A model generated the notes under the pieces. It saw only the letters and a list, made by a program, of their open reading frames with translations, did not search any database and was not told the origin of the DNA. Positions 1 to 20,763 of a stretch of 64,000 bases of DNA are shown here, one piece after another (within the stretch, counting starts at the first letter, position 1; each line of letters begins with the position of its first letter). The stretch comes from Prauserella aidingensis (lineage in GTDB: Bacteria; Actinomycetota; Actinomycetes; Mycobacteriales; Pseudonocardiaceae): contig NZ_JAMTCN010000001.1 of assembly GCF_024171865.1 (NCBI RefSeq), positions 124,001 through 188,000 on the forward strand, written 5' to 3'. Made by a program: the position numbers and the translations under genes.

Positions 1-1616
1 TGCGTTGTGACGCCACCGATCGCGGCCAGGTTTCCCGGCTCCTCGCCGGCATCCCGGAGGACCGGCCGTTGACCGGGGTTGTCCAAGTGGTCGGTGCGCT
101 CGACGACGGCATGCTGGCCGGTCAGACACGAGCCCGGTTGGAACCCGTGCTCGCCGCGAAGATCGACTCGGCGGTGCTGATCGACGAGTTGACGCGCGAG
201 GCGGACCCGGACGTGTTCGTGACGTTCTCCGGCGCTGCCGGGGTACTCGGCAACCCCGGACAGGCCAACTACGCCGCCGCGAACTCGTTCCTCGACGCGC
301 TCGCCCGGCGCAGGCGGCACGAGGGCCGCGCCGCGACGTCCATCGCGTTCGGACTGTGGGCGACCGAGAGCGACCTGACCCGCGACCTCGACGAGGCTGC
401 GGCCGCACGGATGGCGAGCGGCGGGTTCCGCATGCTCTCCGACGAGGAGGGTATGCGGCTCTTCGACGCAGCGCTCGCCGACGGTGCCGACGTGGCCGTG
501 CCGATGAAGCTCGACGTGCCCGCGATGCGCTCCGGCCCGGTGCACCCGGTCCTGCGCCGCGTCGCAGGCCTGGACGGGCCGTCGGAGCAGGAGCCGACCG
601 TTCCCGTCACGTCTGCGATCCCGGTGCCGGCAGCTCAGGGAGAGCCGCAGCCCCCGGACGCAGCCGGCGGAGCGGGGACGGCGGGACACCGGCCGCTCAT
701 AGACCGGCTGGCGGGTGCGGAGCCGGCACGCAGACGCGAGCTGCTGCTGGGGGTCGTGGCCGAGCAGGTGGCGGCAGTCCTCGAGGGATTCCGCTCCTCG
801 GACGTCGAGGCCGACACCGGGTTCGCCGAGATCGGCTTCGATTCGCTCACCGCCGTCGAACTGCGTAATCGCCTCGACGAGATCACCGGTCTGACCCTGC
901 CGGTCACGTTGGTGTTCGACCAGGCGACGGCCGGTGCGCTCGCCGGGCACCTGCTGGATCGGCTGTCCGCACGGATCTCCGGTGGTCCTTCCGCGAACGA
1001 CGAGGCGAAACCTGCGGAGCGGCTCGAGTCCGACGCCGCCCTGGCCGGCGTGCTCGGCGGTGAGCACATCGCGTCTGCGGGCGCGATCGCCGACGTGGGG
1101 GGTGGGGGCGGCGATCGCCTCGCGGAGCTGGCGGCTCGACAGGGTGATGCGGTCGTGCACACGCTTCCCGCCGACCCTGACGTCCCGCTGCCCGCAACCT
1201 ACGACCTCGTCGTCCTGCTCGGCGGCCTGGCTTCGGTGCGCAGGAAACGCGAGCTGTTCGCGCGCATCGACGCGGCGCTGATCGACGGCGGCCGACTGGT
1301 CGTCTCCGATCACGTCGGGACTCTGCGGGGAGACCTCGACGACCCGGCCTCGGGCCTACACGTGGCGAGCGTGGACACCTGGGTCGGCGTCCTCGGTTCG
1401 GCGCGGTTGGTGCTCGAGGAGCTGGCCGAACCGGACGAGGCCGGTATGCCAGGGGCGGCGGACGCGCTCGCGGAGCCGCGCAGGAGGGGCTGGGTCCGGC
1501 CGGTCGCCTTCCGCCTGCTCAAGGACACCGCTGCTGCCGCCGCCGAGCGGGACAGCGCCAACCACCACGCGCTGACGGCGTTCATCGGCGCAGGAGATCG
1601 GGAGAGCCACACATGA
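1..1616 (+). CDS. Modular PKS, 3' part: KR - ACP - methyltransferase-like C-terminus (5' truncated by window)
   Basis: The reading frame is open from base 3 and already inside a ketoreductase, so the gene starts upstream of the window; an internal TTG at 69 is not a real start. The visible KR part has the Tyr/Asn motif GQANYAAANSFLDALA and a preceding FSGAAG serine. An ACP follows with GFDSLTAVELRNRL; its pantetheinylated Ser is encoded at about 843-845. The last ~200 residues are unusual: after a linker comes a glycine-rich IADVGGGGGD stretch and a strand resembling the late part of class I methyltransferases (IDAALIDGGRLVVSDH). It looks like a short or decayed SAM-methyltransferase domain placed after the ACP. 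The stop overlaps the next start (ATGA), so the two PKS genes are translated together. No AT is visible. High confidence for PKS, low for the function of the last domain. Confidence 0.9.
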   Translation, partial: RCDATDRGQVSRLLAGIPEDRPLTGVVQVVGALDDGMLAGQTRARLEPVLAAKIDSAVLIDELTREADPDVFVTFSGAAGVLGNPGQANYAAANSFLDALARRRRHEGRAATSIAFGLWATESDLTRDLDEAAAARMASGGFRMLSDEEGMRLFDAALADGADVAVPMKLDVPAMRSGPVHPVLRRVAGLDGPSEQEPTVPVTSAIPVPAAQGEPQPPDAAGGAGTAGHRPLIDRLAGAEPARRRELLLGVVAEQVAAVLEGFRSSDVEADTGFAEIGFDSLTAVELRNRLDEITGLTLPVTLVFDQATAGALAGHLLDRLSARISGGPSANDEAKPAERLESDAALAGVLGGEHIASAGAIADVGGGGGDRLAELAARQGDAVVHTLPADPDVPLPATYDLVVLLGGLASVRRKRELFARIDAALIDGGRLVVSDHVGTLRGDLDDPASGLHVASVDTWVGVLGSARLVLEELAEPDEAGMPGAADALAEPRRRGWVRPVAFRLLKDTAAAAAERDSANHHALTAFIGAGDRESHT

Positions 1617-4600
1617 CAGACGTCGTGCAGATCGTCGAACAGGCCGCGGCGAAGCTGAATCTGACGACCCTCGCCGGGCTCGACCTGTCGAGGTCGGTGT
1701 CGCTCGTCGAGGCCATCAATGCCGAGCTGGGCACGAACCTGTCCACTGGAGTTGTCGCGGAACATCCCGATGTGCGGCGCCTGGCGTCGCACATCGAGAG
1801 GGTGCTCGCCGACAGGTCCGCCGGTGAGGACATCGCGGTCGTGGGCATGCACTGCCGGGCGGGCGAGGCAACCGGCACCGAGGAGTTCTGGCGGATCGTG
1901 CGTGCCGGCAAGGACGTCACCTCCGAGCTGGCCGATCCGGTCGCCCTCGACATGTACCGCCGGGCGTTCCCGGGTACCGAACTGCCGCGGTACGGCGCCA
2001 TGCCCGACGTGGACGCGTTCGATCCCGCCTTCTTCCGGATCTCGCCGACGGAGGCGGCCGCCATGGACGCCGCCCAGCGCGTGCTGCTCGAGAGCAGTTA
2101 CCACGCTCTCGAGGACGCCGCGATCGATGCCGCCGGCCTGCGCGGGGAACGGGTCGCGACGGTCATCGGCACGACGGGACTGGCTCCGCAGGCCGAGTAC
2201 ACGGCGCACTCGCTGTTGGGATCGGACACCAGCGTGATGGTGTCCCGGTTGGCGTACCACCTGGACCTGGCGGGCCCGGCCCTGGCGGTCGACACGGCCT
2301 GTTCGTCGTCGCTCGTAGCCATCGACGTGGCTCGCCGCATGCTGCTGTCCGGGGCCACCGACGTCGCGCTGGCGGGCGGCGTGTACGTGTGCAACCACCC
2401 CGGCGTGTTTCTGACGATGCAGAGCCTGGGAACCGTCTCGCCCAGCCGGTGTTGCCGCCCGTTCGATGCCTCGGCCGACGGGATGCTCGTCGGTGAGGGG
2501 GTCGGCGTGCTGGTGCTGAAACGACTCGACGACGCGGTCCGCGACAACGACCGGATCCACGGCGTGATCCGTGCGAGCGGGACCAATCAGGACGGCAGAA
2601 CGTCGGGCATCACCGCGCCGAGCACCCGGGCACAGTCGACCTTGCTGCGCGAGGTGCTCGATCGCAGCGGCGTCGACGTCGCCGAACTCGGTTACTACGA
2701 GGCGCACGGCACCGGAACGGCACTCGGGGATCCCATCGAGATCGCGGGCATCACGGACGCATACTCGGACCTCACTCCCGGGACCGGCCTGTTCCCCGTC
2801 GGGTCCGTCAAGGCCAACGTCGGTCACACGATGGGAGCAGCGGGCGTGCTCGGCGTGATGAAGGTGCTGCTGAGCATGCGAGAGGGGGTGACCGCGCCGT
2901 CGGCGAACTTCGACGAACCCAACCCGCACATCGACTTCTCCTCCGCGCCGGTTCGCGTGGACACCGACGAGCGGCCCTGGCGGCCAGCGAGCGATGGGCG
3001 TAGGCATGCCGCCGTCAGCTCGTTCGGTTACAGCGGGACGAACGCACACCTGGTGTTGTCGGACCACCCTGCGCCGGAACGGCCGGAGCGGGGGATGCCG
3101 AAGCCACAGCTGGTTCCGTTGTCGGCGCGCAGCGCGGAGCGTCTCCGGACCAAGGCCGCGGAGCTCGCGGCGGCCCTGCGCGGTCCGCTCGCCGCCACCG
3201 ACGTCGCCGACGTCGCCTACACCCTGCAGATCGGACGCGAATCCATGGCCGAACGCGCGGTGGTGCCTGCCTCGTCCACGGATGAACTGGCCGATCGGCT
3301 CGACGCGGTCGCCGCAGGTGAGTCCGCGGACATCGATACGTTTCCCGCCGCATTGGCCGAGCCTGCGCGCCAATGGGCGAACGGGGAGCACGTCGCGTGG
3401 GCACGGCTGCATCTGGGATCGGCGCCCGGGCGCGTCGGGCTGCCCGGATATCCGTTTGAACGCAACCGGTTCGAGCACGCGTGGGCGGACGGGACGCCGA
3501 TCGAACGTCCGTCGGCGGGGGAGGCACCCCTGACCCCGCACGCCACGGCCACCGCGAGGGACGACACATCGGGGGAGGCGAGCGGACCCGCCGTACGGGA
3601 GGAGCCCGACGGCGTTCCGTCGATGCTGGCGGAGCTGGATGCGGCCGCCGCGGCGCACTTCGCGGCGGATCCCGAACGGACCAGTCTGCGGGCCGCGCTG
3701 GCTGCGGAAGAACTCGCCGCCGAGCTGGGTGCACTGTGCGAGCGTCTGCTGCTCGCCTCACTACGGCGCATGGGTGTGTTCGAGGTGGCGGGTGAACGTC
3801 ACACCGCGGGTGAGTTGATCGAACGCCTCGGGGTCGTGCCCGAGCATCATCGGCTCATCGGCGGTCTGCTGCACCTGCTGGCCGATGCGGGGTATCTCGT
3901 GTCCTACGACGGCGTCTACACGACGACCGAAGCCTGCGCGTCGATGACGCTGCGGTGGGACATGTCCGAAGTGGAGGAACTGGCGGGCAGGCTCGTCGAG
4001 AGCAGACCCGAAATGGCGGGCTTCGCGAAGCTCCTCACGTCGTGCCTCGACGCCTACCCCGATGTGCTGACCGGCCGACTCAAAGCCCACGAGGTGCTGT
4101 TCCCCGAGGGATCTTTCACCGCCGTGGGCGACGTTTACCACAGCGATCAGGACGCCAACGTCCTGGTCGCCCGGTTGGTGGGCGACTACGTCGACGCCCG
4201 GCTGGCGCGGGATCCGGACGTCGGCGTGGCAGTGCTGGAGGTCGGCGCCGGAACGGGGGGCACGGCGGCCAAGGTGCTTCCGGCGATCTCAGCGCACGCG
4301 GACAAGGTGCGGTACACCTACACCGACATCTCCCGCGGTTTCACTCGTTACGGCGCCGACCGTTACGGAGGTGACCACGGGTGCCTCGAAACGGCCGTGC
4401 TCGACATCGACCGGGACCCGGCGACGCAGTCGGTGACCCCGGCCGGTTACGACGTGGTGCTGGCGACGAACGTGCTGCACGCCACTCCGCGGATCGATCG
4501 CACTCTCGCGAACGTACGGAAGCTTCTCCGCCCGGGTGGCGTCGTCCTCGTGCTCGAGGTGACGCGGGTGCAGCCCTTCCCGACGTTGACCTTCGGACTG

Positions 4601-5167
4601 ATGCCGGGTTGGTGGAGCTACGAGGACGCCCGACTGCCGAACGGGCCGTTGCTGAACGCTCCGATGTGGCGCAGAGCCATGGAACGCGCGGGCCTGTCGG
4701 CGGTGCGCTCGTTCTCCATGCTGGCCACCCGTGAGGACCGGGCGATGGAATCCGTACTGCTCGCCGAGAATCCCGGTGCGACCACGGCCGAGGTCCACGA
4801 GGTGGAGTTCGGGGACGTCGGTGCGGCGTCCGATGTGGAGGCGGCCGTGCCGGCAGACCTCGCCGGCGGCGACCCACCGGACACGCCCGAGGGTGGGGCG
4901 CTGCAGGCGATGGTCGCCGAAGCGGTTGCGGACGTGCTGGGACTGCCCGACGTGACGGCGACCGACGACTTCCAGGAACTCGGTGGCGACTCGATCCTCG
5001 CGACACAGGTGATCTCGCGGCTACGGGGCAGATTCCCGATCGAGCTCGACCTCGGCGGGTTGTTCGAGGCCAGCACGGTGGGCGGGATGGCCAAAGTCGT
5101 CGAGTCCGAGCTCGTGGAACGTATCGACGAGCTTCCTGACGGGGTCGTCGAGGACATGCTCGCCTGA
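1613..5167 (+). CDS. Trans-AT PKS module: ACP-like - KS - C-methyltransferase - carrier protein
   Basis: 1184 residues. Residues ~5-65 resemble an ACP, but the usual DSL reads R27-S28-V29, so the Ser is kept and its Asp is lost. Residues ~70-490 are a complete ketosynthase with the Cys-His-His triad: TACSSS (Cys230), HGTGT (His365), NVGH (His405). A short linker follows (LPGYPFERNRF), as is typical where AT is absent; no GHSxG occurs, so the extender must be loaded in trans. Residues ~620-1050 are a C-methyltransferase with the SAM motif EVGAGTGG. The C-terminal carrier has ELGGDSILATQV (Ser1127), which is PCP-like and suits hand-over to the following NRPS condensation domain. There is no KR, DH or ER, so the module should add an alpha-methylated beta-keto unit. 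Its start overlaps the preceding stop. Confidence 0.93.
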   Translation: MTDVVQIVEQAAAKLNLTTLAGLDLSRSVSLVEAINAELGTNLSTGVVAEHPDVRRLASHIERVLADRSAGEDIAVVGMHCRAGEATGTEEFWRIVRAGKDVTSELADPVALDMYRRAFPGTELPRYGAMPDVDAFDPAFFRISPTEAAAMDAAQRVLLESSYHALEDAAIDAAGLRGERVATVIGTTGLAPQAEYTAHSLLGSDTSVMVSRLAYHLDLAGPALAVDTACSSSLVAIDVARRMLLSGATDVALAGGVYVCNHPGVFLTMQSLGTVSPSRCCRPFDASADGMLVGEGVGVLVLKRLDDAVRDNDRIHGVIRASGTNQDGRTSGITAPSTRAQSTLLREVLDRSGVDVAELGYYEAHGTGTALGDPIEIAGITDAYSDLTPGTGLFPVGSVKANVGHTMGAAGVLGVMKVLLSMREGVTAPSANFDEPNPHIDFSSAPVRVDTDERPWRPASDGRRHAAVSSFGYSGTNAHLVLSDHPAPERPERGMPKPQLVPLSARSAERLRTKAAELAAALRGPLAATDVADVAYTLQIGRESMAERAVVPASSTDELADRLDAVAAGESADIDTFPAALAEPARQWANGEHVAWARLHLGSAPGRVGLPGYPFERNRFEHAWADGTPIERPSAGEAPLTPHATATARDDTSGEASGPAVREEPDGVPSMLAELDAAAAAHFAADPERTSLRAALAAEELAAELGALCERLLLASLRRMGVFEVAGERHTAGELIERLGVVPEHHRLIGGLLHLLADAGYLVSYDGVYTTTEACASMTLRWDMSEVEELAGRLVESRPEMAGFAKLLTSCLDAYPDVLTGRLKAHEVLFPEGSFTAVGDVYHSDQDANVLVARLVGDYVDARLARDPDVGVAVLEVGAGTGGTAAKVLPAISAHADKVRYTYTDISRGFTRYGADRYGGDHGCLETAVLDIDRDPATQSVTPAGYDVVLATNVLHATPRIDRTLANVRKLLRPGGVVLVLEVTRVQPFPTLTFGLMPGWWSYEDARLPNGPLLNAPMWRRAMERAGLSAVRSFSMLATREDRAMESVLLAENPGATTAEVHEVEFGDVGAASDVEAAVPADLAGGDPPDTPEGGALQAMVAEAVADVLGLPDVTATDDFQELGGDSILATQVISRLRGRFPIELDLGGLFEASTVGGMAKVVESELVERIDELPDGVVEDMLA

Positions 5168-5213
5168 CCGCCGGCCAACACGATCCATCATGAACCAGGG
5201 GAGAGGAGTCCGG

Positions 5214-8200
5214 ATGTCTCTGGACGAGCAGGTCGGCGCGGGCCGGGACAAGCTGTCACCGAAGAAGCGTGCGCTGCTGGCGAAGCTGACCGGTAGCGCT
5301 GACGACGCCGTGCCGGTACCGCGCGTGGGCGGGATTCCCCGCCGTGATCCGGACAGTCGTCCGCCACTGTCGTTCGCGCAGCGGCGGTTGTGGTTCCTGG
5401 ATCGCATGGTGCCGGGAAGCCCCGCATACAACGTCGTGATGACGTTCGCGATCAGCGGACCGCTGCGAACCGACGTCATGGGGAGGGCGGTCGCGGAGAT
5501 CGTCCGCAGGCACGAGGCACTGCGGACCACGTTGCCGGACGTCGACGGTGAGCCGTACCAGCTGGTCGCCGACGAGCTGGAGATACCGGTTCGCACCCAC
5601 GACGTCCGTGACGCGCCGGACACCATCGACGACCTCGTCACCCACCACGCGCGGGAACCCTTCGACCTCGCCGAGGGCCCACTGCTCCGAGTCGAGCTGT
5701 TCCGGACCGGTGACGAGCACTGGATCGTGTTCCTCAACGCACATCATGTCGTCGTCGACGGGTGGTCGCTCGGCCTGTTCTGGGAGGAACTGCTCACCAT
5801 CTACGACGCGTTCGCGGACGGCAGACCGTCGCCGTTTCCCGAACTGCCGATACAGTACCCGGACTTCGCCGTCTGGCAGCGGGAACACCTCGCGGGTGAT
5901 CGGCTGGAGACACAGTTGGCGTACTGGCGCGAACGCCTCGACGGGCTCGCCGAACACCTCGAGCTGCCGTTCGACCGGCCGCGGCCCGCAGTGCAGACCT
6001 TCGAGGGTGACGGTACGGAGCTCGTGTTTCCCGGGCGCGTCCGCGACGGCCTTCAGGAACTGGCGCGACAGCGCGGAGTCGGCCTGTTCACGGTGTTGCT
6101 GGCCGCGTTGAAGGCACTGCTCCACCGCTACACGGGGCAGGGCGACATCGCTGTCGGCTCACCCGTGACCAACCGGACGCACGTGGACGTCGAGCCGCTC
6201 ATCGGGTTCTTCGTCAACACCCTGGTCCACCGCACGGAGGTGGTGGGCGACGACCGTTTCGTCGACCTCGTGGAACGGGTCCGCGACGGGGTGGCGACGG
6301 CACAGCGGCATCAGGAGGTGCCGTTCGAAGCCATCGTCGAGACGCTGCGTCCCGAGCGGTACCTGAGCCAGAATCCGCTGTTCCAGGTGTGCTTCAACTT
6401 CCTGCCCGCCCGGCCGATGCGTGCGCCGGCCGGGTTGACCGTCGAACGTATCTCGGGCGTACGCAACAAGACCTCGAAATTCGACCTCTGGATCAGTGTC
6501 GTCGACCGTGACGACGACCTGCTGGTCGAAGTCGAGTACGACTCGACGGTCTTCGACCGCGGGACGATCGACCGGCTGCTCGCCGGCTACCGGGAGCTGC
6601 TCGACGCCGTCGTCGACTGCGCGGATGTCCGGATCTCCCGGTTGCCGGTGATGACCGCCGAGGACCGGAAACTGGTCGAATCCGACTGGGGTGGGCGGTC
6701 GACGAACGACCCGGTTCGCCCCGAACTGTTGCATGAGTTGATCACTGCCCGCGCGAACGAGGCCCCGGACAGCGTCGCGGTCACCGACGGAACCGCTGAG
6801 CTCACCTACGGCGAACTGGACGCCCGCGCGAATGCGCTCGCCGCGGCCTTGCGGGAGCGCGGGGTGAACCGCGGCACGCTGGTGGCACTGTCGGCCGAGC
6901 GGTCCGCCGACCTCGTGCTGGGTGTGCTGGGCATCCTGAAGGCCGGTGGGGCGTACGTGCCCGTCGATCCCGCCTACCCGGCCGACCGCATCAGGTACCT
7001 GCTCGCCGATAGCGGTGCGACCGTCCTCGTGACGCAGCGCCACCTCGTCGACAGTCTTGCTCGTGCGGACGTCGAGATCGTGACCGTGGACGGCCACGTC
7101 GAGGCCGGTGACCTCGGGCGGCTTCCCGGGGCGGGCCCGCACGACCCCGCGTACGTGATCTACACGTCCGGGTCGACGGGCAAGCCCAAAGGCGTGATGG
7201 TCAGTCATGCCAACGTCACACGGCTGTATTCCGCGACAGACCACTGGTTCCACTTCGGGCCGGACGACGTGTGGAGTCTTTTCCATTCGGCAAGTTTCGA
7301 CGTGTCGGTGTGGGAACTCTTCGGTGCGCTCACACACGGCGGCCGGCTCGTGATCGTGCCGTTCACTGTCTCGCGCTCACCCGAGGAATTCCTCCGGTTG
7401 CTCCGCAGCGAACACGTAACGGTGCTGAGCCAGACGCCGCTGGCGTTCCGGCACCTGATGGAGGCCGAAGAGAACGCACCGCCCGGTGAGCTCGCACTGC
7501 GCCTCGTGGTGTTCGGTGGTGAGAACCTGGACGTCACTGCGTTGAAGCCGTGGTTCGACCGGCACGGCGACACCAGGCCGAGGCTGGTCAACATGTACGG
7601 CATTACGGAGACGACCGTGCACGTCACCTACCGGGAGATCACACGCGCGGACGTCGATTGGCCGTCGGCCGGCTCACCCATCGGCCGTGCCATGCCGGAC
7701 CTGTCGGCACGGGTGCTGGACGTGTACGGCGAGCCGTGTCCCATCGGTGTCCGGGGGGAACTCCATGTCGGCGGTGACGGCGTGACGTCGGGATATTTCC
7801 ACCGGCCCGAGCTGACGGCGCGGCGGTTCGTCGAGGGCCCGCACGGGCGCGAGTACCGTTCCGGCGATCTGGTCCGCTGGTTGCCGTCGGGTGAACTGGA
7901 GTACCTCGGCCGGGCCGACCAACAAGTGAAGATCCGCGGACACCGGATCGAGCTCGGCGAGGTCGGCGGGGTACTGACCGAACATCCCGCCGTCCGGGAG
8001 GCGGTGGTCCTGCCGGACGACGACGGTACGCGCCTGATCGCCTACGTGATCCCCGACGACGAGCGTCCGGAGCCCGGCGGCGGAGGCGACCGCGGCGTGG
8101 AGTGGCGTGACGTCTTCGAGCGGGTCTACGACGAGGCGGCGGATGTTGACGGCGACTTCGACACTCGCGGTTGGGTCAGTAGTTATACGGGCCGCAACGT

Positions 8201-11159: not shown

Positions 11160-14100
11160 CCGGCCCTGTCGTCTTCCTGCTCGCAGGCCAGGGCAGCCAG
11201 CACTACCAGATGGCGTCGCAACTCTACCGCGACGAGCCGGTTTTCCGTGCGGAGCTCGACCGCCTCGACGCCATCGTGGCCGAGCTGAGTGGCCGTTCGG
11301 TCGTTCAGGAACTGTACGGGGCGGGCAAGTTCACCGACGAGTTCAACGACACGCTCCTGACCCATCCGGCGATCGTGATGGTCGAGCTCGCCCTGGTGGA
11401 GTTGCTCCGTGCCGACGGCATCGAGCCGGACATCCTGCTGGGGTCGAGTCTCGGGGAGTTCACGTCCGCCGCTGTCGCCGGGGTGCTCACCGTTCCGGAG
11501 TGCCTCGAGCTGGTCGTCGGACAGGCCCGGTCGCTCGAAGGTCTGCCACCCGGCGGAATGCTCGCCATCCTGGCCGACCCGGGACTGTACGAACGGGTGC
11601 CGGAGCTATGTGAGGGAACGGATCTCGCCGCGCGGAACGGCCCCGGGCATTTCGTCGTGTCCGGGGCGGAAGAACAGCTCGTCGCGGCGGAGGTGGCGCT
11701 GAGTCGAGCGGACGTGCCCTGCCAGCGGGTCGCCGTGGAGCACGCGTTCCACTCGCGCCTCCTCGACTCGCGGCGGCAGGCGTTCGACGAGGCGGTGAGC
11801 CGGCTCGTGTTCCGGCGGCCGCGCGTCACGCTGGTGTCCTGTGCGACCGGGGACGTGATCGCACAGCCGGATCCGGAGCACTACTGGCAGGTCGTGTCCG
11901 GGCCCATCGAGTTCGAGAAGGCCGTGCGCGGCCTCGAATCGCGGGGTGCCCACCGGTACGTCGACGTGGGGCCGTCGGGAACCCTGCACAACCTCACCGC
12001 GGCCCTTCTGGGGCCGGAACGCGGCCGTTCGTACCCACTGCTGAGCGTCGTCGGCCAGGACGACCGGCTGCTCGCGACCGTGCGCGAGCAGCTGCGGCCG
12101 CACCCGACGAGTCCGCCGGCCGCAGCGGGTCCTCGGCGGTCCCTCGCGAAGGAGAAGACGCCTATGAAGGTCTACGGTTTTCCCGGACAGGGCTCCCAGT
12201 CGCAGGGCATGGGAGCCGACCTGTTCGACAGGTTTCCCGACCACGTCGGCACGGCGGATGCGGTGCTCGGCTATTCGATCCGCGAACTGTGCGAGCGCAA
12301 CCCCGAAGGCAGACTTCGACAGACGCAGTACACGCAACCCGCTCTGTACACCGTGTCGGCGCTGGCCTACCTCGCGCACGTCGACGACGATCCTGTTCCG
12401 CCCGATTTCGTCGTGGGGCACAGTCTCGGCGAGTACGCCGCCCTGTTCGCCGCGGGCGTCGTCGATTTCGAGACAGGACTGCGGCTCGTCGCGCGGCGCG
12501 GTGAGCTGATGGCGCAGGCGCCCGCAGGAGGCATGGCTGCGGTGGTCGGCTGCGACCTGTCGACGATCGAGCACATCGTCTCCGAGATCGACGACCTTTA
12601 CATCGCCAACGTCAACGCGGCCGACCAGGTGGTGCTGTCCGGGTCCGACACAGCCATCGACACGGCGAAGCCGCTGGCCGAGCAGGCGGGAGCGAGGTTC
12701 GGCCGACTGAGAGTCGGCGGTGCACTGCATTCACCGTTCGTGTCCGCGGCGGCCGAGGAGTTCGGCCGGTTCGCGCGGACGTTCGAGCTTGCCGAACCCC
12801 GCGTTCCGGTGATCGCGAACGTTGATGCACGCCCGCACGACCGGGCGACGATGGTGGAGCGGCTCACCCGTCAGATCGACAGCCCGGTGCGGTGGCTCGA
12901 CACGGTGCGCTACCTCCTGGCGCTCGGCGACGTCGACTTCGTCGAGCTCGGGCCGGGCCGCGTGTTGCGCAAACTCGTCGCCAAGATCCGCGAGCAGGAA
13001 ACCGTCCGGGAACCGCAGACCCGGCCCCGGGAGACCGCACGCCCCGCGGAGGACGCAGCCGTCCCTGAGGTGTCCACACCGTCCGCATCTTCGTCCCCGC
13101 ACCGTGGCGAGCCGGCGCACGCGGTCAGCGTTTCCCAGGCCACTACGGCGGCTGCGGCCGCCGATGCGCCGGCCCCGGCGGCCGGGGCCGGCGCATCGTT
13201 CCGGAGGCGATACGGTCTGGACCACGCCTGTGTCGCCGGTTCCCTCTACGGTGCCGTGTCCGGTGTTGACATGGTGACGTGCCTGGCGCGGGCCGGGGTG
13301 CTCGCCTTCTACGGCGCGGGGGGTACGGGTCTCGGCCAGGTCGAGGAGGACCTCGGCAAGATCGGCGCCGACCTGAGTGGATCGCGGCCGTTCGGTGCGA
13401 ACCTCCCGTATTCGTACGGCGACCACGAGCGGGAGCTCGCGCTGGTCGACCTCTATCGCCGATTGGGCGTGGACACCGTTGAGGCGTCCGGTCACCTGGA
13501 GATCTCGCCCGGCGTCGTCAAGTTCCGACTCACCGGCGGATCGGTCATCGCGAAGGTGAGCCGTTCGGACATCGCCCGACAGTTCCTTGAGCCCGCTTCG
13601 CCGGAGATCGTGCGATATCTGCACGAGAACGGCCACCTGTCCGACGACGAGGCGGCGAGAGCGGAAACGCTGCCGGTGGCCCGCGACGTCGTCGTGGAGG
13701 CCGGTTCGGGCTGGCTGAGCGGCGCGGCCACGCTTCCCACGTTGTTGCCTTCCGTGGTGCGGCTTCGCGACGCGATGCAGGCCTACGCCGAGCCCGTGCA
13801 CGTCGGCGCGGCCGGTGGGCTCGGAACTCCGGAGGCTGTTGCCGGTGCCTTCTTCATGGGCGCAGACTTCGTTCTCACCGGCTCGATCAACCAGTGCACG
13901 GTCGAGGCGGCGACGAGTCCCGTCGCGAAGGACATCCTGGCAGGCCTCTCCGTCCATGACGTCGACACCGCGCCGTGGCCCGACCTGTTCGAGCTCGGCG
14001 GACGCAACACCGTGGTGCGGAAAGGCCTGTTCTATCCGGCCAGGGCGAGCAAGCTGTACGAGCTGTGGCGTGCCCACGACAGGTTCACCGACATCGACGC

Positions 14101-14428
14101 GGCGACTCGTGACCAGATCGAGCGCAACTATCTGCGCAGGCCGTTCACGGACGTTCTCGCCGACGTCGGTGCGAGCGGCGATGCGAAACAGGACATGGCG
14201 GAGGTGTTCCGCACGTACTTGTCGGGAGGACTCGCCTTGGTATGGGAGGGGGATCCGGGTCGCCGGGTCGACTATCACCTGCCGTGCGGCCCCGCTATGG
14301 GCGCGTTCAACGACTGGGCGCGTGGCACCCCGTTCGAGGACTGGCGCGCACGGAACGTCGACACCGTCACCGTCGAACTGCTCCGGGCTGCGGGTGCGCT
14401 CCTCGACCACCACGGGATGAGCCGATGA
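11156..14428 (+). CDS. Free-standing tandem acyltransferase - acyltransferase - enoylreductase (AT1-AT2-ER)
   Basis: 1090 residues, GTG start preceded by GGAGGTG and overlapping the NRPS stop. Residues 1-310 are AT1: LLAGQGSQ, nucleophile motif GSSLGE (not the usual GHSLGE) and EHAFHS. Residues ~338-620 are AT2: FPGQGSQSQGMG, canonical GHSLGEYAALFAAG and GGALHSPF, as in FabD-like malonyl transferases. After a Pro/Ala/Thr-rich linker, residues ~680-1090 form a PfaD-like FMN enoylreductase (YGAGGTGLGQVEEDL, VHVGAAGGLGTPE). In trans-AT systems AT2-type domains load malonyl units, while AT1-type partners are often acyl hydrolases that clear stalled carriers; that split is inferred here from the two nucleophile motifs. 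The ER would act in trans on modules upstream of the window. Confidence 0.93.
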   Translation: MTGPVVFLLAGQGSQHYQMASQLYRDEPVFRAELDRLDAIVAELSGRSVVQELYGAGKFTDEFNDTLLTHPAIVMVELALVELLRADGIEPDILLGSSLGEFTSAAVAGVLTVPECLELVVGQARSLEGLPPGGMLAILADPGLYERVPELCEGTDLAARNGPGHFVVSGAEEQLVAAEVALSRADVPCQRVAVEHAFHSRLLDSRRQAFDEAVSRLVFRRPRVTLVSCATGDVIAQPDPEHYWQVVSGPIEFEKAVRGLESRGAHRYVDVGPSGTLHNLTAALLGPERGRSYPLLSVVGQDDRLLATVREQLRPHPTSPPAAAGPRRSLAKEKTPMKVYGFPGQGSQSQGMGADLFDRFPDHVGTADAVLGYSIRELCERNPEGRLRQTQYTQPALYTVSALAYLAHVDDDPVPPDFVVGHSLGEYAALFAAGVVDFETGLRLVARRGELMAQAPAGGMAAVVGCDLSTIEHIVSEIDDLYIANVNAADQVVLSGSDTAIDTAKPLAEQAGARFGRLRVGGALHSPFVSAAAEEFGRFARTFELAEPRVPVIANVDARPHDRATMVERLTRQIDSPVRWLDTVRYLLALGDVDFVELGPGRVLRKLVAKIREQETVREPQTRPRETARPAEDAAVPEVSTPSASSSPHRGEPAHAVSVSQATTAAAAADAPAPAAGAGASFRRRYGLDHACVAGSLYGAVSGVDMVTCLARAGVLAFYGAGGTGLGQVEEDLGKIGADLSGSRPFGANLPYSYGDHERELALVDLYRRLGVDTVEASGHLEISPGVVKFRLTGGSVIAKVSRSDIARQFLEPASPEIVRYLHENGHLSDDEAARAETLPVARDVVVEAGSGWLSGAATLPTLLPSVVRLRDAMQAYAEPVHVGAAGGLGTPEAVAGAFFMGADFVLTGSINQCTVEAATSPVAKDILAGLSVHDVDTAPWPDLFELGGRNTVVRKGLFYPARASKLYELWRAHDRFTDIDAATRDQIERNYLRRPFTDVLADVGASGDAKQDMAEVFRTYLSGGLALVWEGDPGRRVDYHLPCGPAMGAFNDWARGTPFEDWRARNVDTVTVELLRAAGALLDHHGMSR

Positions 14429-15507
14429 GCCCCGGGGTCGTCGGCCACACGGAGCCCGGGTACCGCGGGGTCGCAATGGTCTTCGCGGGCGCGGGCGGTC
14501 AGTGGCGTGGCATGGGCGCGGGTCTGTGGGACGAATCGCCGGTGTTCCGGGAGACCGCGACCGCGTGCGCCGACGCGTTCGCCCCCTACATCGACTGGTC
14601 CCTGACGGACGTGTTGTGCGGTGTACGCGGGGCCGCGTCGATGAACCGGCCCGACGTCGTGCAGCCGGCCCTGTTCACGTTGATGGTGTCGGTGGCCGCC
14701 GTGTGGCGCTCGTTCGGCGTGTACCCGGCCGCCGTCGCAGGTCACTCCCAAGGGGAGATCGCGGCCGCGCATGTCGCGGGAGCACTGTCGCTCGACGACG
14801 CTGCGCGCGTGGTCGCGTTGCGCAGCCGGCTTATCGCCGAGCGGCTCGTGGGCACCGGGTCGATGCTCTCTGTGCCGCTGTCGGTCAAGCTGGTCGAAGA
14901 GCGACTGGCCGATCACACCGGTGTGCTGGCCGTCGCCGCCGTCAACGGGCCGTCGGCGACGAGCGTCGCCGGCGATGTCGACGCGATCGAGAAACTGTTC
15001 GCGGAGCTGGTCGACGACGACGTCCGAGTGGCTCGCATCGCCTCGGACTTCGCGGCTCACTCTCCGCACATCGACGCCATCCACGCGCCCCTGCTCGACG
15101 CACTCGGCGGCATCCGCCCGCGCGCGGCGGGGATTGCGTTCTGTTCGTCCGTGACGGGCGATCTCGCCGAGCCCAGGTCGCTCGACGCGCCGTACTGGTA
15201 CCAGAATCTACGCGGCCGGGTGGAGTTCGAAGCCGCCGTGCGCACTCTGGTTCGGCTCGGATACCGGCACTTCGTCGAACCGTCGTCGCATCCGCTCCTC
15301 ACGGCACCGATCGGTGACATCGGCAGGGACGTGGGTGCGGACGTCGCGGCGGTCGGCTCGCTGGCGATGGGCGAGAGCGGTCTGCGGACCCTGACCGACT
15401 CGATCGCGACCGCGGAGAGACACGGCGTCCTGGTCGACTGGGAGGGCGCCCGCCGAGCGGGCCACCGGAACGTGGTCCCACCGCACCGTTCGAAGGAGCA
15501 TCCGTGA
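14425..15507 (+). CDS. Discrete acyltransferase, probably for the methoxymalonyl extender unit
   Basis: 360 residues; ATG overlaps the AT-AT-ER stop and its own stop overlaps the GTG of the dehydrogenase gene (GTGA). Unlike the preceding AT2, it resembles AT domains of cis-AT synthases: VFAGAGGQWRGMG at the N-terminus, nucleophile GHSQGEIAAAHVAGAL, and DFAAHS where malonyl ATs have HAFHS and methylmalonyl ATs YASHS. Direct coupling to the methoxymalonyl-ACP genes suggests it transfers that unit from the small ACP to one PKS carrier. This matches the two-AT arrangement known for oxazolomycin synthase. Family assignment is strong; substrate is inferred from context. Confidence 0.9.
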   Translation: MSPGVVGHTEPGYRGVAMVFAGAGGQWRGMGAGLWDESPVFRETATACADAFAPYIDWSLTDVLCGVRGAASMNRPDVVQPALFTLMVSVAAVWRSFGVYPAAVAGHSQGEIAAAHVAGALSLDDAARVVALRSRLIAERLVGTGSMLSVPLSVKLVEERLADHTGVLAVAAVNGPSATSVAGDVDAIEKLFAELVDDDVRVARIASDFAAHSPHIDAIHAPLLDALGGIRPRAAGIAFCSSVTGDLAEPRSLDAPYWYQNLRGRVEFEAAVRTLVRLGYRHFVEPSSHPLLTAPIGDIGRDVGADVAAVGSLAMGESGLRTLTDSIATAERHGVLVDWEGARRAGHRNVVPPHRSKEHP

Positions 15508-16367
15508 CAGAACAAAGTGGCGACCACCGGATCACGGTCCTGGGGGCGGGGACGATGGGCGTCGGTATCACCGCCGTGGCCGTCGGGCACGGCGTACCGG
15601 TCACCGTGGTCGATGTCGACCAGACGGTGCTGGAGGCGGCCCGGAACCGAATCCGGGCCGAGCTCCGGTTCGCCCGGATGATGGATGCGTTGCCCGAGGG
15701 GGAGCGCGGTGACCTGGTGTTGACGACGGCCGTCGACGACGGAGCGGACGCCACCGCCGTGATCGAAGCCGTCACCGAGTCGGCCGAGGTGAAGGCCGAA
15801 GCGCTGGCGGGAGCCGCCACGGTCGTGACACCGGGTACGCCGCTCGTGTCCAACACGTCGTCGATCCCGATCGACGAACTCGCCGATGCGGTCTGCCGCC
15901 CCGGCGACGTGATCGGTACGCATTTCATGAACCCGCCGTACCTGATTCCGCTGGTGGAAGTGATCCGGGGACGACGTACCGACCGGGCGGTCGAGACGAC
16001 GCTGATGTCACTGCTGTCGGCGATCGGCCGTACCGGCCGGGTAGTGGGGGACAGCCCGGGCTTCGTGACGAGTCGTGTCCTGCACCCGATGATCAACGAC
16101 GCGATCCGGGTCGTGCGTGAAGGCACGGCGGATGCGGAGACCGTCGACGCATTGTTCGAGGGTTGCCTCGGCCATCGGACGGGGCCGCTGCGGACGGCCG
16201 ACCTCATCGGACTCGACAATCTCGCGGATTCGCTGCGGGTCCTGCACCAGCGGACCGGTGACGAGGGCTGTGCGCCCGACCCACTGCTTCTCGACAAGGT
16301 CGAGGCAGGACTGTTCGGCCGGAAAACGGGCCGAGGTTTCTACAGCTACGGAGGAGACGCATCATGA
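15504..16367 (+). CDS. fkbK: 3-hydroxyacyl-CoA/ACP dehydrogenase of methoxymalonyl-ACP synthesis (FkbK-like)
   Basis: 287 residues. The N-terminal Rossmann motif VLGAGTMGVGITAVAVG and the NTSSIPIDELA and FMNPPYLIPLVEV stretches are those of the 3-hydroxybutyryl-CoA dehydrogenase family. In the FK520/ansamitocin-type pathway this enzyme oxidises the glyceryl unit carried on the small ACP, on the way to hydroxymalonyl-ACP. The start is GTG, overlapping the AT stop, and the stop overlaps the ACP start (ATGA). With fkbJ, fkbI and fkbH homologues directly following, the pathway assignment is well supported. Confidence 0.92.
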   Translation: MTEQSGDHRITVLGAGTMGVGITAVAVGHGVPVTVVDVDQTVLEAARNRIRAELRFARMMDALPEGERGDLVLTTAVDDGADATAVIEAVTESAEVKAEALAGAATVVTPGTPLVSNTSSIPIDELADAVCRPGDVIGTHFMNPPYLIPLVEVIRGRRTDRAVETTLMSLLSAIGRTGRVVGDSPGFVTSRVLHPMINDAIRVVREGTADAETVDALFEGCLGHRTGPLRTADLIGLDNLADSLRVLHQRTGDEGCAPDPLLLDKVEAGLFGRKTGRGFYSYGGDAS

Positions 16368-16651
16368 CCACCACGCCCCGGCCCGTCGACCCGGCGTCCG
16401 ACGAGGTCGCCGAGCGCATCTCGCGGTTCGTCGCCGAGCACACCCGGACCTCGTGGGAGCACGACACCGACCTGTTCGCCACGGCGGGCCTGTCGTCGAT
16501 GTTCGCGATGGAACTCGTGGTGTTCCTCGAGAAGAATTTCGACATCGAGATCGCGGGTCCGGACCTGAAGCTGGCCAACTTCCGCACGATCGAGCTGATG
16601 GCGCAGCTGGTCGCCCGGCTCCGCGAGTCCGATGAGGACGCTCGTGGCTGA
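16364..16651 (+). CDS. fkbJ: Stand-alone acyl carrier protein for methoxymalonyl-ACP (FkbJ-like)
   Basis: 95 residues. The carrier motif is GLSSMFAMELVVFLEKNF, with SSM where assembly-line carriers have DSL; this variant is usual in the methoxymalonyl ACP family, and the second Ser would carry phosphopantetheine. It is preceded by GGAGGAGA. It overlaps the dehydrogenase gene upstream and the acyl-ACP dehydrogenase gene downstream. It should carry the glyceryl, hydroxymalonyl and methoxymalonyl intermediates. Confidence 0.93.
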   Translation: MTTTPRPVDPASDEVAERISRFVAEHTRTSWEHDTDLFATAGLSSMFAMELVVFLEKNFDIEIAGPDLKLANFRTIELMAQLVARLRESDEDARG

Positions 16652-17777
16652 CCCGGCCGCCGCCGTGCTCGCCGACGAGTCCATCGGCGAGGCAGCGGGC
16701 GAGTGGGATGCCGCCGGTGTCGTACCGGACGACGTCGTCCGTACGTTCGCGTCGCGCGGCCTGCTGTGCGCGCAGGTACCCACGCGTTACGGCGGCCTCG
16801 GGATGTCGAGTCATGAGGGAGGCGAGTTCACCGCGTACGTCGGTTCGCGGTGCAGTTCGTTGCGCAGCATCATGACGTCACAGGGAATGGCGGCGTGGAC
16901 GATTCAGCGGACGGGTGATCGCAGGCAGCGCGCGGAGTTGCTGGGGCGGTTGACGAGTGGGGAGACCGCGGCCGTGGCCTTCAGCGAACGGAACGCGGGT
17001 AGCGACCTGTCGGCGATGGCGACCACGATCGAGCTTGACGGCGACACCGTGGTGGTGACCGGCGAAAAGGTGTGGATCACTGCCGCGACCTACGCCGATG
17101 TGATCGTCGTGTTCGGGCTGTTCGATGACGGTATGGGCGCGGTGGTCGTGCCTGCGACCGCCCCGGGGGTGTCCGTCGAGCGCATCGCCGAGCCGCTGGG
17201 TTGCGCGGCAGCGGGTCACGCCGTCGTCCGGCTCGACAGGGTTCGAGTCCCGGCGCGGGCTCTGCTCGGGGGAGGGGGGCAGGCACCCTCGCTGCTGACC
17301 GCGTACGCCCTGGCATCGGGGCGGATGTCGGTCGCCTGGGGCTGCGTGGGCATCCTCCGCGGCTGCCTCGCCGCCGTCAGCGACCACGTGCGGCAACGCG
17401 AACAGGGTGGTGCGGTGCTCGCCGAGCATCAGCTCGTGGCGCGTCACGTCGCGCGGTTGCACGTTGCGGAGCGGACGGCGACGCGGATGTGCGCGCACGC
17501 GAGCGAGTGCTGGGATGCGGGGTCGCCGGACGCCGTGTCGGCGACGGTACTGGCGAAGTATGTGAGCGCGCGGGGTGCGGCCGACGGGGCGTCGGACGCC
17601 GTTCAGCTTCTCGCGTCGGCCGGAGCAGGAAGCCACCATGTCGTGTCGCGTGCGTATCGCGACGCGAAGTTGATGGAGATCATCGAGGGCAGCAACGAGA
17701 TCTGTGAACTGTTGTTGGCCGAGCACGCGCTCGCGGGGTCGGCTCGACCGGCGGGAGCGACGGGAGTGAGCGTATGA
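16644..17777 (+). CDS. fkbI: Acyl-ACP dehydrogenase of methoxymalonyl-ACP synthesis (FkbI-like)
   Basis: Acyl-CoA dehydrogenase fold with FAD, 377 residues from the GTG at 16644, which has GAGG eight bases upstream; an in-frame ATG at 16632 (381 residues) lacks a Shine-Dalgarno sequence but is possible. Visible motifs are AFSERNAGSDLSAM and KVWITAATYADV in the middle domain and EIIEGSNEICELLLAEHAL near the C-terminus. Homologues oxidise the 3-carbon unit on the partner ACP to aminomalonyl or hydroxymalonyl forms; the fkbJ/fkbH neighbours select hydroxymalonyl. Its stop overlaps the next start (ATGA). Confidence 0.91.
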   Translation: MADPAAAVLADESIGEAAGEWDAAGVVPDDVVRTFASRGLLCAQVPTRYGGLGMSSHEGGEFTAYVGSRCSSLRSIMTSQGMAAWTIQRTGDRRQRAELLGRLTSGETAAVAFSERNAGSDLSAMATTIELDGDTVVVTGEKVWITAATYADVIVVFGLFDDGMGAVVVPATAPGVSVERIAEPLGCAAAGHAVVRLDRVRVPARALLGGGGQAPSLLTAYALASGRMSVAWGCVGILRGCLAAVSDHVRQREQGGAVLAEHQLVARHVARLHVAERTATRMCAHASECWDAGSPDAVSATVLAKYVSARGAADGASDAVQLLASAGAGSHHVVSRAYRDAKLMEIIEGSNEICELLLAEHALAGSARPAGATGVSV

Positions 17778-18838
17778 CGACGACGGTGAAGTGCCTGGTG
17801 TGGGATCTGGACAACACGCTGTGGCAGGGGACGCTCCTCGAAGATGACGAGGTGGTCCTCTCGGAGGAGATTCGTGCGGTGATCACCGAGCTCGACAGCA
17901 GGGGGATCCTACAGGCCGTGGCGAGCAAGAACGACCACGAGCACGCGTGGGGGCGGCTCGAGAAGCTCGGCGTGTCCGAGTACTTCGTGCTGGCCGAGAT
18001 CGGCTGGGGACCGAAGTCGGCATCGGTACGGACCATCGCGGAGCGGCTGAACTTCGCCGAGGGGGCCGTCGCGTTCATCGACGACCAGCCTGCGGAACGT
18101 GCGGAGGTCCGGTACCACCTGCCCGACGTGCGGTGTTTCGACGCTCCGGACGCGGCGCGCCTCACCGCGCTTCCCGAGTTCAGCCCCGCTCGGCGGACGA
18201 TCGATTCGGGCAGGCGCCGGGAGATGTACCAGGCGAACTTCCGGCGTGACGCCGAACGTGCCGAGTTCACCGGTCCCGACGAGGATTTCCTGCGTTCGCT
18301 CGACCTGGAACTGCAGATCCTCCGCGCCGGGGAGTCCGAACTGAGCCGGGTCGAGGAACTGACGGTGCGGACCAGTCAGATGAACGCGACCGGCGTGCCC
18401 TACTCCGACGAGACCTTGCGGGGATTCATCGCGGACCCCGGACACGAGGTGCTCGTCGCCACGCTGCAGGATCGCTTCGGCACCCACGGCGCGATCGGTG
18501 TGGCACTGCTGGAGACCGGGCAGGCGGCGTGGCGCCTGAAACTTCTGGCGACGTCATGCCGCGTCGTGTCGTTCGGGGTCGGCACGGTGATCCTCAACTG
18601 GTTGGCTGACCAGGCCGCGTCCGCGGCCGTCCACCTGCTCGCGGACTTCCGCCGCACCGACCGCAACCGGATGATGGAGATCGCTTATCGGTTCGCGGGG
18701 TTCGACGATGCCGACTGCGCTTGCCGTCGGGTGACCGGCGCCGCAGGCGGCGACGGTGTGGAGCTGCTGCACCTGGAGGCCGAGCGGCGGGAGCCACCCG
18801 ACACGATGCGTCTGCTCACCCCAGACCTGTCGGCGTGA
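17774..18838 (+). CDS. fkbH: HAD-type glyceryl-ACP synthase (FkbH-like)
   Basis: 354 residues. The HAD motif is at the N-terminus (VWDLDNTLWQG), followed by a second HAD signature FIDDQPAERAEV and a C-terminal region with the N-acyltransferase-like QMNATG. FkbH family enzymes take 1,3-bisphosphoglycerate, remove phosphate and load the glyceryl unit onto the pathway ACP, the first step to methoxymalonyl-ACP. The gene overlaps fkbI and has GGAGTGAG before its ATG. It is the last plus-strand gene of the biosynthetic operon. Confidence 0.93.
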   Translation: MTTTVKCLVWDLDNTLWQGTLLEDDEVVLSEEIRAVITELDSRGILQAVASKNDHEHAWGRLEKLGVSEYFVLAEIGWGPKSASVRTIAERLNFAEGAVAFIDDQPAERAEVRYHLPDVRCFDAPDAARLTALPEFSPARRTIDSGRRREMYQANFRRDAERAEFTGPDEDFLRSLDLELQILRAGESELSRVEELTVRTSQMNATGVPYSDETLRGFIADPGHEVLVATLQDRFGTHGAIGVALLETGQAAWRLKLLATSCRVVSFGVGTVILNWLADQAASAAVHLLADFRRTDRNRMMEIAYRFAGFDDADCACRRVTGAAGGDGVELLHLEAERREPPDTMRLLTPDLSA

Positions 18839-18850
18839 CCGGATCGCAGG

Positions 18851-19504
18851 CTAGCCCGCCTTGCGGGCGAGAGTGATGCCGTCGGCGACCGGCAGGACGC
18901 AGCTGTCGACCCGGTCGTCCCGGCGAACGCGTTCGTTGAGTTCGCGGACGGCCACCGTGTCGGCGTCCTGTGCGTCCGGATCGGCCACTCGCCCGAAGAA
19001 GAGCGTGTTGTCCACGACGATGAGGCCGCCCGGGCGAAGCAGAGTGACCGAGCGATCGTAATAGGCGGCGTAGTTGCGCTTGTCGGCGTCGATGAACACG
19101 ACGTCGACGCTGCCGGGCTCGAGTGTCTCCAACGTGCCGAGGGCGTCGCCGAGCCGCAGGTCGACGAGATGGTCGACGCCGGCCTTGCGCCAGAAATCCG
19201 CACCGATGTCGGTGACCTTCTTGCTGATGTCGCACGTGATCAGGCGACCGGACCGCGGCAGCGCACGCGCCATGGCCAGGGTGCTGTAGCCCGTGAAGGT
19301 GCCGAGTTCCAGCACCGTGGTCGCCCCGGTGAGCCGTACGAGGAACGCCAACAGTCGGGCCTCGCTCGGTGGCACCTGCATGGCGGTGCCGCCCGGGAGT
19401 TCCGCGGTCAGCTCGCGCAGTTCACGGAGAAGGTCGTCCTCGGCCTCCGAGATGTTCTCGATGTAGGCGAGTATTGCACTGTCCGCGGTGATCTGGGTGG
19501 CCAT
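18851..19504 (-). CDS. fkbG: SAM O-methyltransferase, FkbG-like (methoxymalonyl-ACP) or caffeoyl-CoA type
   Basis: 217 residues from the ATG at 19504; a GTG nine bases upstream is also in frame and neither has a clear Shine-Dalgarno. Class I methyltransferase of the caffeoyl-CoA O-methyltransferase family: [19 protein letters not shown] (SAM site), [26 protein letters not shown] (metal-binding Asp) and [11 protein letters not shown]. In FK520 and oxazolomycin clusters such an enzyme methylates hydroxymalonyl-ACP, the step missing from the plus-strand set. It is convergent to fkbH with a 12-base gap, so it has its own promoter somewhere in 19505-19755. The role is inferred from position and family. 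Confidence 0.85.
18854..18868. terminator. Small hairpin between convergent fkbH and fkbG homologues
   Basis: Perfect six-base arms GCCCGC/GCGGGC with a three-base loop, lying directly at the 3' end of the minus-strand methyltransferase gene and 16 bases after the plus-strand stop. No T-run follows, so it could equally be a chance feature of the GC-rich coding end. Confidence 0.35.
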
Positions 19505-19588
19505 GCGGAGCACTCTAGTGCGTGTGCCCGCAGCGGACCAGACGTCGCTGTGTCTTAAGAGGACGGACCAGCAGGAATACCGCTGTAC

Positions 19589-19755: not shown

Positions 19756-20703
19756 CTAGGCGTCGGTGTCGCCTGCGGTCGTGTCCGGGGCCAGGACGAT
19801 GTCGAACCGGGCCTTCGTCCACGTGCGGTCGCCGAGGTCGCGGCCGTCCGGGGTGGGCGCGCCGGGTTCCTGCCTCTCGAACCGTTTCACCAGCGACTCC
19901 TTGACGCCGAACACCGAGTCGCCGATCTCCAGCTGCGGATCACCCTCGACGAAGATGTGCGTGACGAGGGTGCGCAGGTTCGGCGCGGTCACCATGAAAT
20001 GCAGGTGCGCCGCTCGGACCGGTGACCGTCCGGCGGCCTCGAGGAGTCGTCCGACCGGGCCGTCGTGCGGGATCGGATACGGCGTCGGCGTCAGGCACCA
20101 GAACCGGAAACTGCCGTCCGCCTCGGTGAACAGGTGCCCGCGGCCCGCGACCCGCCCGTCGTCGTACTGCACGTCGTAGAAACCGTCCTCGTCGGCCTCC
20201 CACACCTCGACGCGCGCACCCGGAACCGGCGTGCCGTCGGTGTCACGCACGGTTCCCTCCACCCAGCACGGCTCGCCGGGTGCGCCGCCCGCGATGTCAC
20301 CGCCGTTGCCGACCAGCGGCGCGTCGTCGACGAAGAACGGGCCGAACACGGTGGCCTCCGTGGCATCGCGGCAGGCCTCGTTGTTGACGGCGATCGTCTG
20401 CATCGACGCACCGAGCACATCGGACAGCAGGATGAACTCCTGGCGCTTGTCGTCGGTGATGTGTCCCGTGGCGGTCAGGAAGTCGATCGCCTGCTTCCAC
20501 TCGTGCTCGGTGAGGCGGACGTCGCGGACGAACGCGTGCAGGTGTCGGGTCAGCGACGCGAGCACCTCGCGCAGCCGATCGTCGCCCGCGCCTGCGAACG
20601 AGGCGACGACCTCCTCGGTCAACCGCTCCTCGATCCTGCGCTGCTCGTCCGGCACCCCGCGCCTGCCGGATGCCGCAGGCGACGAGTCCTCGGTCGTGGT
20701 CAT
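19756..20703 (-). CDS. Intradiol ring-cleavage dioxygenase, hydroxyquinol/catechol 1,2-dioxygenase family
   Basis: 315 residues. The N-terminal helical dimerisation part (~residues 20-120) and the Fe(III) domain are both present: [34 protein letters not shown], a Tyr in GFYDVQY, a Tyr in [12 protein letters not shown] and the His pair in RAAHLHFMV, matching the two-Tyr two-His iron site. The length and the [11 protein letters not shown] stretch favour hydroxyquinol 1,2-dioxygenases, which open 1,2,4-trihydroxybenzene to maleylacetate, over plain catechol enzymes. It lies 60 bases downstream of a phenol-hydroxylase-like gene on the same strand, so the two probably act in sequence. No maleylacetate reductase is in the window. 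Confidence 0.88.
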
Positions 20704-20763
20704 ACGTCGGCTCCTTCTCGGTTCGGCCCGGTGTCGGTGCGTTCCACGGCGGCACCGGGCGGC

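What the first reader, a model, noticed from the sequence alone, without database searches (positions are those of the whole stretch)
1..19504. Trans-AT PKS/NRPS cluster end with methoxymalonyl supply: a likely oxazolomycin-class locus
Seen: AT-less KS module, free AT-AT-ER, a second AT of cis type, complete fkbG/H/I/J/K-like set, and an NRPS with an N-methylating module. Known: oxazolomycin is made by a trans-AT hybrid that uses malonyl and methoxymalonyl units with two kinds of free AT. Inferred: the product here may share the N-methyl gamma-lactam/beta-lactone head. Only the 3' end of the cluster is in view, so identity is open.
Basis: partly seen in the sequence, partly recalled or inferred. 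Interest (0 to 1): 0.75.

Follow-up and report, generated by a model that had tools for sequence, protein, structure and literature searches.

The report
Lajollamycin-type nitro-polyene antibiotic gene cluster
This stretch is the tail end of a complete gene cluster that most likely makes a lajollamycin-like antibiotic, a nitrated relative of oxazolomycin; the kind is already known, but this gap-free copy lies outside Streptomyces and points to an unusual enzyme domain that may close the molecule's strained rings.

Summary
In detail: window 1-19513 holds the 3' end of a trans-AT PKS/NRPS cluster with free ATs, a methoxymalonyl-ACP gene set and an N-methylating NRPS. The rest lies directly upstream on the same contig (cluster about G000:C2:64615-143513, no N). 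It begins with LuxR, P450 and nitric oxide synthase genes, then a KSQ-loaded PKS. Gene kind and order match the published lajollamycin (laj) cluster at 17 of 17 positions. The oxazole-starter genes of oxazolomycin-type clusters are absent. The host falls with Pseudonocardiaceae; laj-like clusters in Saccharomonospora and Prauserella are already in print. Two points stand out. The nitrating P450 is the most conserved protein of the cluster (86-88%; the others 45-80%) although its synonymous sites are as diverged as theirs. The NRPS's terminal condensation-like domain has lost its catalytic HH in 7 of 7 laj and oxazolomycin-type relatives examined, while internal C domains keep it (12 of 12), which makes it a candidate ring-closing release domain. 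Ordinary as a cluster; modest interest.

The parts
1..1616 (+). 3' end (KR-ACP) of the Laj8-like PKS (2464 aa; whole gene G000:C2:118222-125616; MT-KS0-DH-ER-KR-ACP), the proposed methoxymalonyl-using protein
1613..5167 (+). Laj9-like PKS module KS-MT-ACP, no AT and no KR
   Evidence: 73.6% identical to S. oryzae
5190..11159 (+). Laj10-like NRPS C-A-MT-PCP-C*; nine specificity residues DVWSVGMVH
9690..11156 (+). Terminal condensation-like domain in which HHxxxDG is SYLCLDG (Ser1662-Tyr1663, about 10173-10178)
11156..14428 (+). Laj11/OzmM-like free AT1-AT2-ER; AT1 has GSSLG, AT2 GHSLG
14425..15507 (+). Laj12-like free AT (360 aa from the ATG overlapping the previous stop codon), proposed methoxymalonyl-ACP loader
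15504..16367 (+). FkbK/OzmG-type 3-hydroxyacyl-CoA dehydrogenase
16364..16651 (+). FkbJ/OzmE-type discrete ACP (95 aa)
16632..17777 (+). FkbI/OzmD-type acyl-CoA dehydrogenase
17774..18838 (+). FkbH/OzmB-type glyceryl transferase/phosphatase
   Evidence: TIGR01686
18851..19513 (-). FkbG/OzmF-type O-methyltransferase, 3' border of the cluster

Best explanation
The region is the 3' part of a complete lajollamycin-type biosynthetic gene cluster (about G000:C2:64615-143513) in a bacterium of Pseudonocardiaceae. Proposed working: a decarboxylating KSQ gives an acetyl starter and a cis-AT module adds methylmalonate. Trans-AT modules served with malonyl units by AT2 of 11156-14428 build the polyene, take in a Gly unit and build the middle part. 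One step uses methoxymalonyl-ACP made by 15504-19513 and loaded by the AT at 14425-15507. A KR-less KS-MT-ACP module leaves a beta-ketone, and the NRPS adds an N-methylated Ser/Thr-like residue. Cyclisation and release give the spiro-beta-lactone/gamma-lactam head without a recognised thioesterase, and NOS plus P450 nitrate the end of the tetraene. Shown here: gene content, order, domains, motifs, homology. Inferred: product, substrates, order of events, release step.
For: Gene kind and order agree with the 17 laj genes of PMC10831120 Table 1 at 17 of 17 positions. Colinear relatives: S. oryzae (three contigs), G488 (gap-free), G341. KSQ, cis-AT with YASH, three DH-KR modules with C-MT in the third and the Gly code DILQFGLIW fit the structure details given in PMC10831120. 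NOS domain, 512.8 bits, and P450 with intact heme motif.
Against: The S. qinglanensis proteins themselves were not available for comparison. Laj12 is 360 aa here against 697 there and Laj11 1090 against 1224. The Laj8-like KS, and one KS of Laj6, lack the first catalytic His; a motif scan suggests the same for the G488 Laj8-like KS. The A10 residues DVWSVGMVH match neither the Ser nor the Thr code that I recall, so that residue is uncertain. No metabolite data exist.
Confidence: 0.86

Rival explanations
1. An oxazolomycin-making locus: formyl-glycine/oxazole starter, triene, same head.
For: The head and methoxymalonyl parts are shared with oxazolomycin-type clusters.
Against: No formyl transferase domain in the scanned cluster proteins and no SGGKDS motif in C2:44001-188000; both are in G575/G591. 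NOS, nitrating-type P450 and KSQ starter are present instead.
Confidence: 0.02
2. A congener with the same head and tail but without, or with different, tailoring: for instance an un-nitrated product or another amino acid in the head.
For: A10 residues differ between clusters: DVWSVGMVH here and in G341, DMWSVGMVH in G488, DFWNIGMVH in S. oryzae. Assembly proteins are only about 60-75% identical.
Against: The P450 is the most conserved protein of the cluster, with intact motifs, and NOS is 75-80% identical.
Confidence: 0.1
3. The His-less terminal C domain is an X-domain-like platform that recruits the nitrating P450 to the carrier-bound chain.
For: Glycopeptide X domains are altered C domains that recruit P450s (recalled). 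PMC10831120 does not exclude on-line nitration.
Against: The same altered motif is in G575 and G591, which are not among the P450 hits; in their fetched 100 kb the best P450 match is 36% (G575) or none, and no NOS is found.
Confidence: 0.05

Closest known systems
Lajollamycin (laj) cluster, Streptomyces qinglanensis CGMCC 4.6825 (PMC10831120)
   Same: Same 17 gene kinds in the same order: LuxR, nitrating P450, NOS, KSQ-type starter PKS, trans-AT PKSs, NRPS, two free ATs, methoxymalonyl set
   Different: Other family of actinomycetes; free AT 360 aa instead of 697; S. qinglanensis sequence itself not compared; close stand-ins are about 45-88% identical by protein
Oxazolomycin (ozm) cluster and the oxazolomycin-type clusters G575, G591
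   Same: AT-AT-ER, methoxymalonyl set, KS-MT-ACP, C-A-MT-PCP-C* NRPS with the same altered terminal motif
   Different: They start from F-A-PCP with an SGGKDS protein and lack NOS and the nitrating P450 in the stretch fetched; gene order differs
Phthoxazolin (ptx) cluster (PMC5764310)
   Same: AT-AT-oxidoreductase protein with inactive-looking AT1; trans-AT PKS/NRPS with a Gly module
   Different: Oxazole starter; no mention of 'methoxymalonyl' in the main text

Membership tests
Lajollamycin-type cluster | NOS gene and nitrating P450 gene next to the starter PKS | tested here: met
   P450 86-88% to four other such clusters
Lajollamycin-type cluster | Laj4-type KS-ACP-KS-AT-DH-KR-ACP starter protein | tested here: met
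   (first KS is KSQ)
Lajollamycin-type cluster | Two free AT proteins and methoxymalonyl-ACP set | tested here: met
   free AT shorter than Laj12
Lajollamycin-type cluster | Sequence identity to the S. qinglanensis laj proteins | not tested
   Sequence not available; compared with S. oryzae, G341, G488, G538 instead
[quoted passage not shown]
   Needs metabolite analysis
Oxazolomycin cluster proper | Formylating loading module F-A-PCP (OzmO) and SGGKDS cyclodehydratase (OzmP) | tested here: not met
   positive control G575/G591
Oxazolomycin class in the wide sense | AT-less line, AT-AT-ER, methoxymalonyl-ACP set, C-A-MT-PCP terminal NRPS | tested here: met
   one module with its own AT exists, in the Laj4-like protein, as in laj

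The most novel reading that the evidence does not exclude
The terminal condensation-like domain of the lajollamycin/oxazolomycin NRPS is a distinct His-less domain type that catalyses or templates the aldol closure of the gamma-lactam and the beta-lactone-forming release of the chain, with the conserved Tyr of [SN]Y[LF]CLDG at the place of the catalytic His. It would be the missing ring-forming step of the class.
Probability: 0.3. Interest if true: 0.65.

Novelty: new member of a known kind. Interest (0 to 1): 0.33.

Why it matters
It gives a gap-free lajollamycin-type cluster from Pseudonocardiaceae; the only other copy seen in the 390 family genomes sampled is broken by scaffold gaps. Comparing laj and oxazolomycin-type lines separates what is shared (head and His-less terminal C domain) from what differs (tail and nitration). 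That puts the question how this class closes its spiro-beta-lactone and leaves the enzyme without a recognised thioesterase onto one domain that can be tested. The unusually conserved nitrating P450 is also a lead for biocatalysis.

Tried and rejected
Module shuffle in G341: blocks of the Laj6- and Laj8-like proteins look transposed and part of Laj9 missing. The fetched stretch has seven runs of exactly 100 N, and five of the six odd junctions lie at such runs; the sixth (about 59.9-60.0 kb of that stretch) does not. A scaffolding/assembly artefact is the likely reading, not proved.

Recent transfer of the P450: rejected, its 4-fold sites are 46-48% identical like those of the other genes. Local gene conversion at the FkbK C-terminus (86-89% against 63-64% for the N-terminal part in three laj-type relatives): rejected, 4-fold identity there is 45-48%.

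P450 recruitment as the role of the terminal C domain: made unlikely by G575/G591.

No 16S was found in the draft genome, so RpoB was used. The primary oxazolomycin paper PMC2888422 is not held, so I do not know whether OzmL's terminal domain is discussed there. A PADLOC scan of the AT, a plasmid search (best identity 50%) and a two-row alignment with a meaningless second row were of no use. Structure prediction and fold search were not run. No phylogenetic tree was built.

Full report
WHERE IT LIES. The window is G000:C2:124001-188000 of an 80-contig, 5.65-Mb draft genome. I fetched C2:44001-124000. The cluster runs from about C2:64615 to 143513 (window 19513); no N occurs in the 144 kb examined. 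Upstream genes in C2 coordinates: LuxR 64615-66168, P450 66245-67462, NOS 67495-68688, PKS 68790-76046 (2418 aa), 75982-90321 (4779 aa), 90318-114185 (7955 aa), 114182-118225 (1347 aa), 118222-125616 (2464 aa, ending at window 1616).

OBSERVATION. Every item in the finding is borne out by Pfam/NCBIfam. Refinements: the second AT starts at 14425, overlapping the previous stop codon, and is 360 aa. AT1 of the AT-AT-ER protein has GSSLG where AT2 has GHSLG; PMC5764310 (passages) calls the first AT of PtxA apparently inactive through a His-to-Ser and another change, much as in OzmM and KirC1.

ASSEMBLY LINE (weak ACP calls marked '?'). Laj4-like: KSQ-ACP-KS-AT-DH-KR-ACP. Laj5-like: three KS-DH-KR-ACP modules, the third with C-MT. 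Laj6-like: KS-KR-MT-ACP, C-A-PCP with Gly-type residues DILQFGLIW, KS-DH-KR-ACP, KS-DH-ACP?-MT-KR-ACP, KS0, KS-KR-ACP. Laj7-like: KS and three or four ACPs. Laj8-like: MT-KS0-DH-ER-KR-ACP. Laj9-like: KS-MT-ACP. Laj10-like: C-A-MT-PCP-C*. Of 13 KS domains one is KSQ (VDTGQSSS), two lack the first catalytic His and 10 keep Cys-His-His. The Laj4 AT has YASH, a methylmalonyl mark by recall. An acetyl starter, methylmalonate and C-methylation in the third Laj5 module fit the nitro-bearing end and the 4'-methyl of lajollamycin B as described in PMC10831120 (parts 2 and 3 of 4 and passages read). This is inference. The A10 residues DVWSVGMVH match neither recalled code, Ser (DVWHLSLID) nor Thr (DFWNIGMVH), in full; S. 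oryzae has DFWNIGMVH. S. qinglanensis makes both Ser- and Thr-type lajollamycins.

IDENTITY. Table 1 of PMC10831120 lists 17 laj genes; kind and order agree at 17 of 17 positions. Lengths are within about 8% except for Laj12 (360 here, 697 there), Laj11 (1090, 1224) and Laj3 (397, 438). I did not have the S. qinglanensis sequence. G488, from the Streptomyces sample, is colinear, with a P450 of 405 aa and an NRPS of 2004 aa, the published lengths of Laj2 and Laj10. No formyl transferase domain appears in the scanned cluster proteins, and no SGGKDS in C2:44001-188000 or in the 95 kb of G488; G575 and G591 have both. So the class inference holds and the 'oxazolomycin' reading is replaced by lajollamycin-type.

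HOST AND SPREAD. RpoB is 92% identical to G341 (same family, other genus), 84-87% to six named genomes (Amycolatopsis, Umezawaea, Actinokineospora, Saccharopolyspora, Kutzneria, Lentzea; all Pseudonocardiaceae by recall) and 76-79% to five others, S. oryzae 77%. PMC10831120 states that such clusters occur in Streptomyces, Saccharomonospora and Prauserella; the genus here is not established. P450: 243 of 390 family genomes match at E <= 1e-110, but besides G000 itself only G341 (88%) exceeds 52% identity; none of the 6 other genomes of the genus matches at E <= 1e-120; 3 of 392 genomes of the Streptomyces sample match at E <= 1e-180, with 86-87%. In some searches four candidates per genome were scored. 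Window proteins are about equally far from G341 and from S. oryzae (NRPS 71.2 and 69.4%, Laj4-like 62.1 and 62.7%) although the hosts are not (RpoB 92 and 77%), which suggests transfer between families; no tree was built.

CONSTRAINT. The P450 is 87.6, 87.4, 86.4 and 86.2% identical to G341, S. oryzae, G538 and G488. The other cluster proteins measured are 45-80% (two relatives, 15 other genes; the O-methyltransferase is not in that table and is 64% to S. oryzae; Laj7 against S. oryzae is dropped because the match is a paralogous KS, the orthologue not being on the contigs fetched). At 4-fold sites the P450 is 46-48% identical, like the other genes (about 40-53%; the outlier is the small ACP, 75.9% of 29 sites in S. 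oryzae). The excess is therefore best read as purifying selection.

TERMINAL DOMAIN. The last 489 residues are a condensation-type domain (best PDB relative PvdL, E 2.7e-50) in which HHxxxDG is SYLCLDG. The change (SY, once NY) is present in 7 of 7 aligned clusters: window, G341, G488, G538, S. oryzae, G575, G591. The internal C domains keep HH: 6 of 6 for the first C of this NRPS and 6 of 6 for the Laj6 C, window plus five relatives each, matches under 38% identity not shown. In the Streptomyces sample 5 of 392 genomes have a terminal domain match at E <= 1e-60; all five are in this set. No thioesterase domain appeared in the scanned cluster proteins; one alpha/beta-hydrolase hit, in an ORF at 25552-26925, lies 6 kb beyond the cluster and overlaps other ORFs. 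Because G575/G591 show no NOS or nitrating-type P450 in the fetched 100 kb, the change belongs to the class, not to nitration. I propose that the domain closes the rings and releases the chain; that is not shown. Searches for 'oxazolomycin, condensation domain, lactone' (5 papers), 'OzmL' (2 papers, one relevant) and 'condensation domain, catalytic histidine, beta-lactone, release' (5 papers) listed no paper whose title or abstract start describes it. Of the papers listed there I saw passages of PMC4979870, PMC7990883 and parts of PMC10831120 only; the primary oxazolomycin paper is not held. So it may be in print elsewhere.

VERDICT. A real, complete cluster of a known type in a less usual host. 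The interest lies more in the class-wide release question than in the cluster itself.

Noticed in passing
L109-L111, L118, L119 (G341:C2, both contig ends): The laj-like cluster of G341 spans the contig ends and has seven runs of exactly 100 N; apparent shuffling of Laj6/Laj8 blocks is probably an assembly artefact, though one of six odd junctions has no N run.
   Followed up: partly
window 14425-15507 against G488 (L136 region): The free AT is 360 aa here, but 685 aa in G488 (AT at residues 291-608) and 697 aa in S. qinglanensis; the extra N-terminal part may be a remnant of a KS-AT linker.
   Followed up: partly
window 19756-24754 (-): Next to the cluster lie an intradiol-type dioxygenase, an FAD-dependent aromatic hydroxylase and two AraC-type regulators, which look like aromatic catabolism rather than part of the cluster.
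   Followed up: no
G000 contigs C8, C43, C44, C47, C52, C53, C56, C57, C61, C13: Many further type I ketosynthases (55 KS matches in the genome, 13 of them in this cluster) point to other large PKS clusters broken over contigs.
   Followed up: no
window 16056-16364: The C-terminal 103 residues of the FkbK-type dehydrogenase are far more conserved (86-89%) than the N-terminal part (63-64%) in three laj-type relatives, without lower synonymous divergence.
   Followed up: yes
G341, after the FkbH-like gene (84-100 kb of the joined stretch): No FkbG-type O-methyltransferase was found within about 14 kb after FkbH in G341, while S. oryzae and G488 have it there.
   Followed up: no
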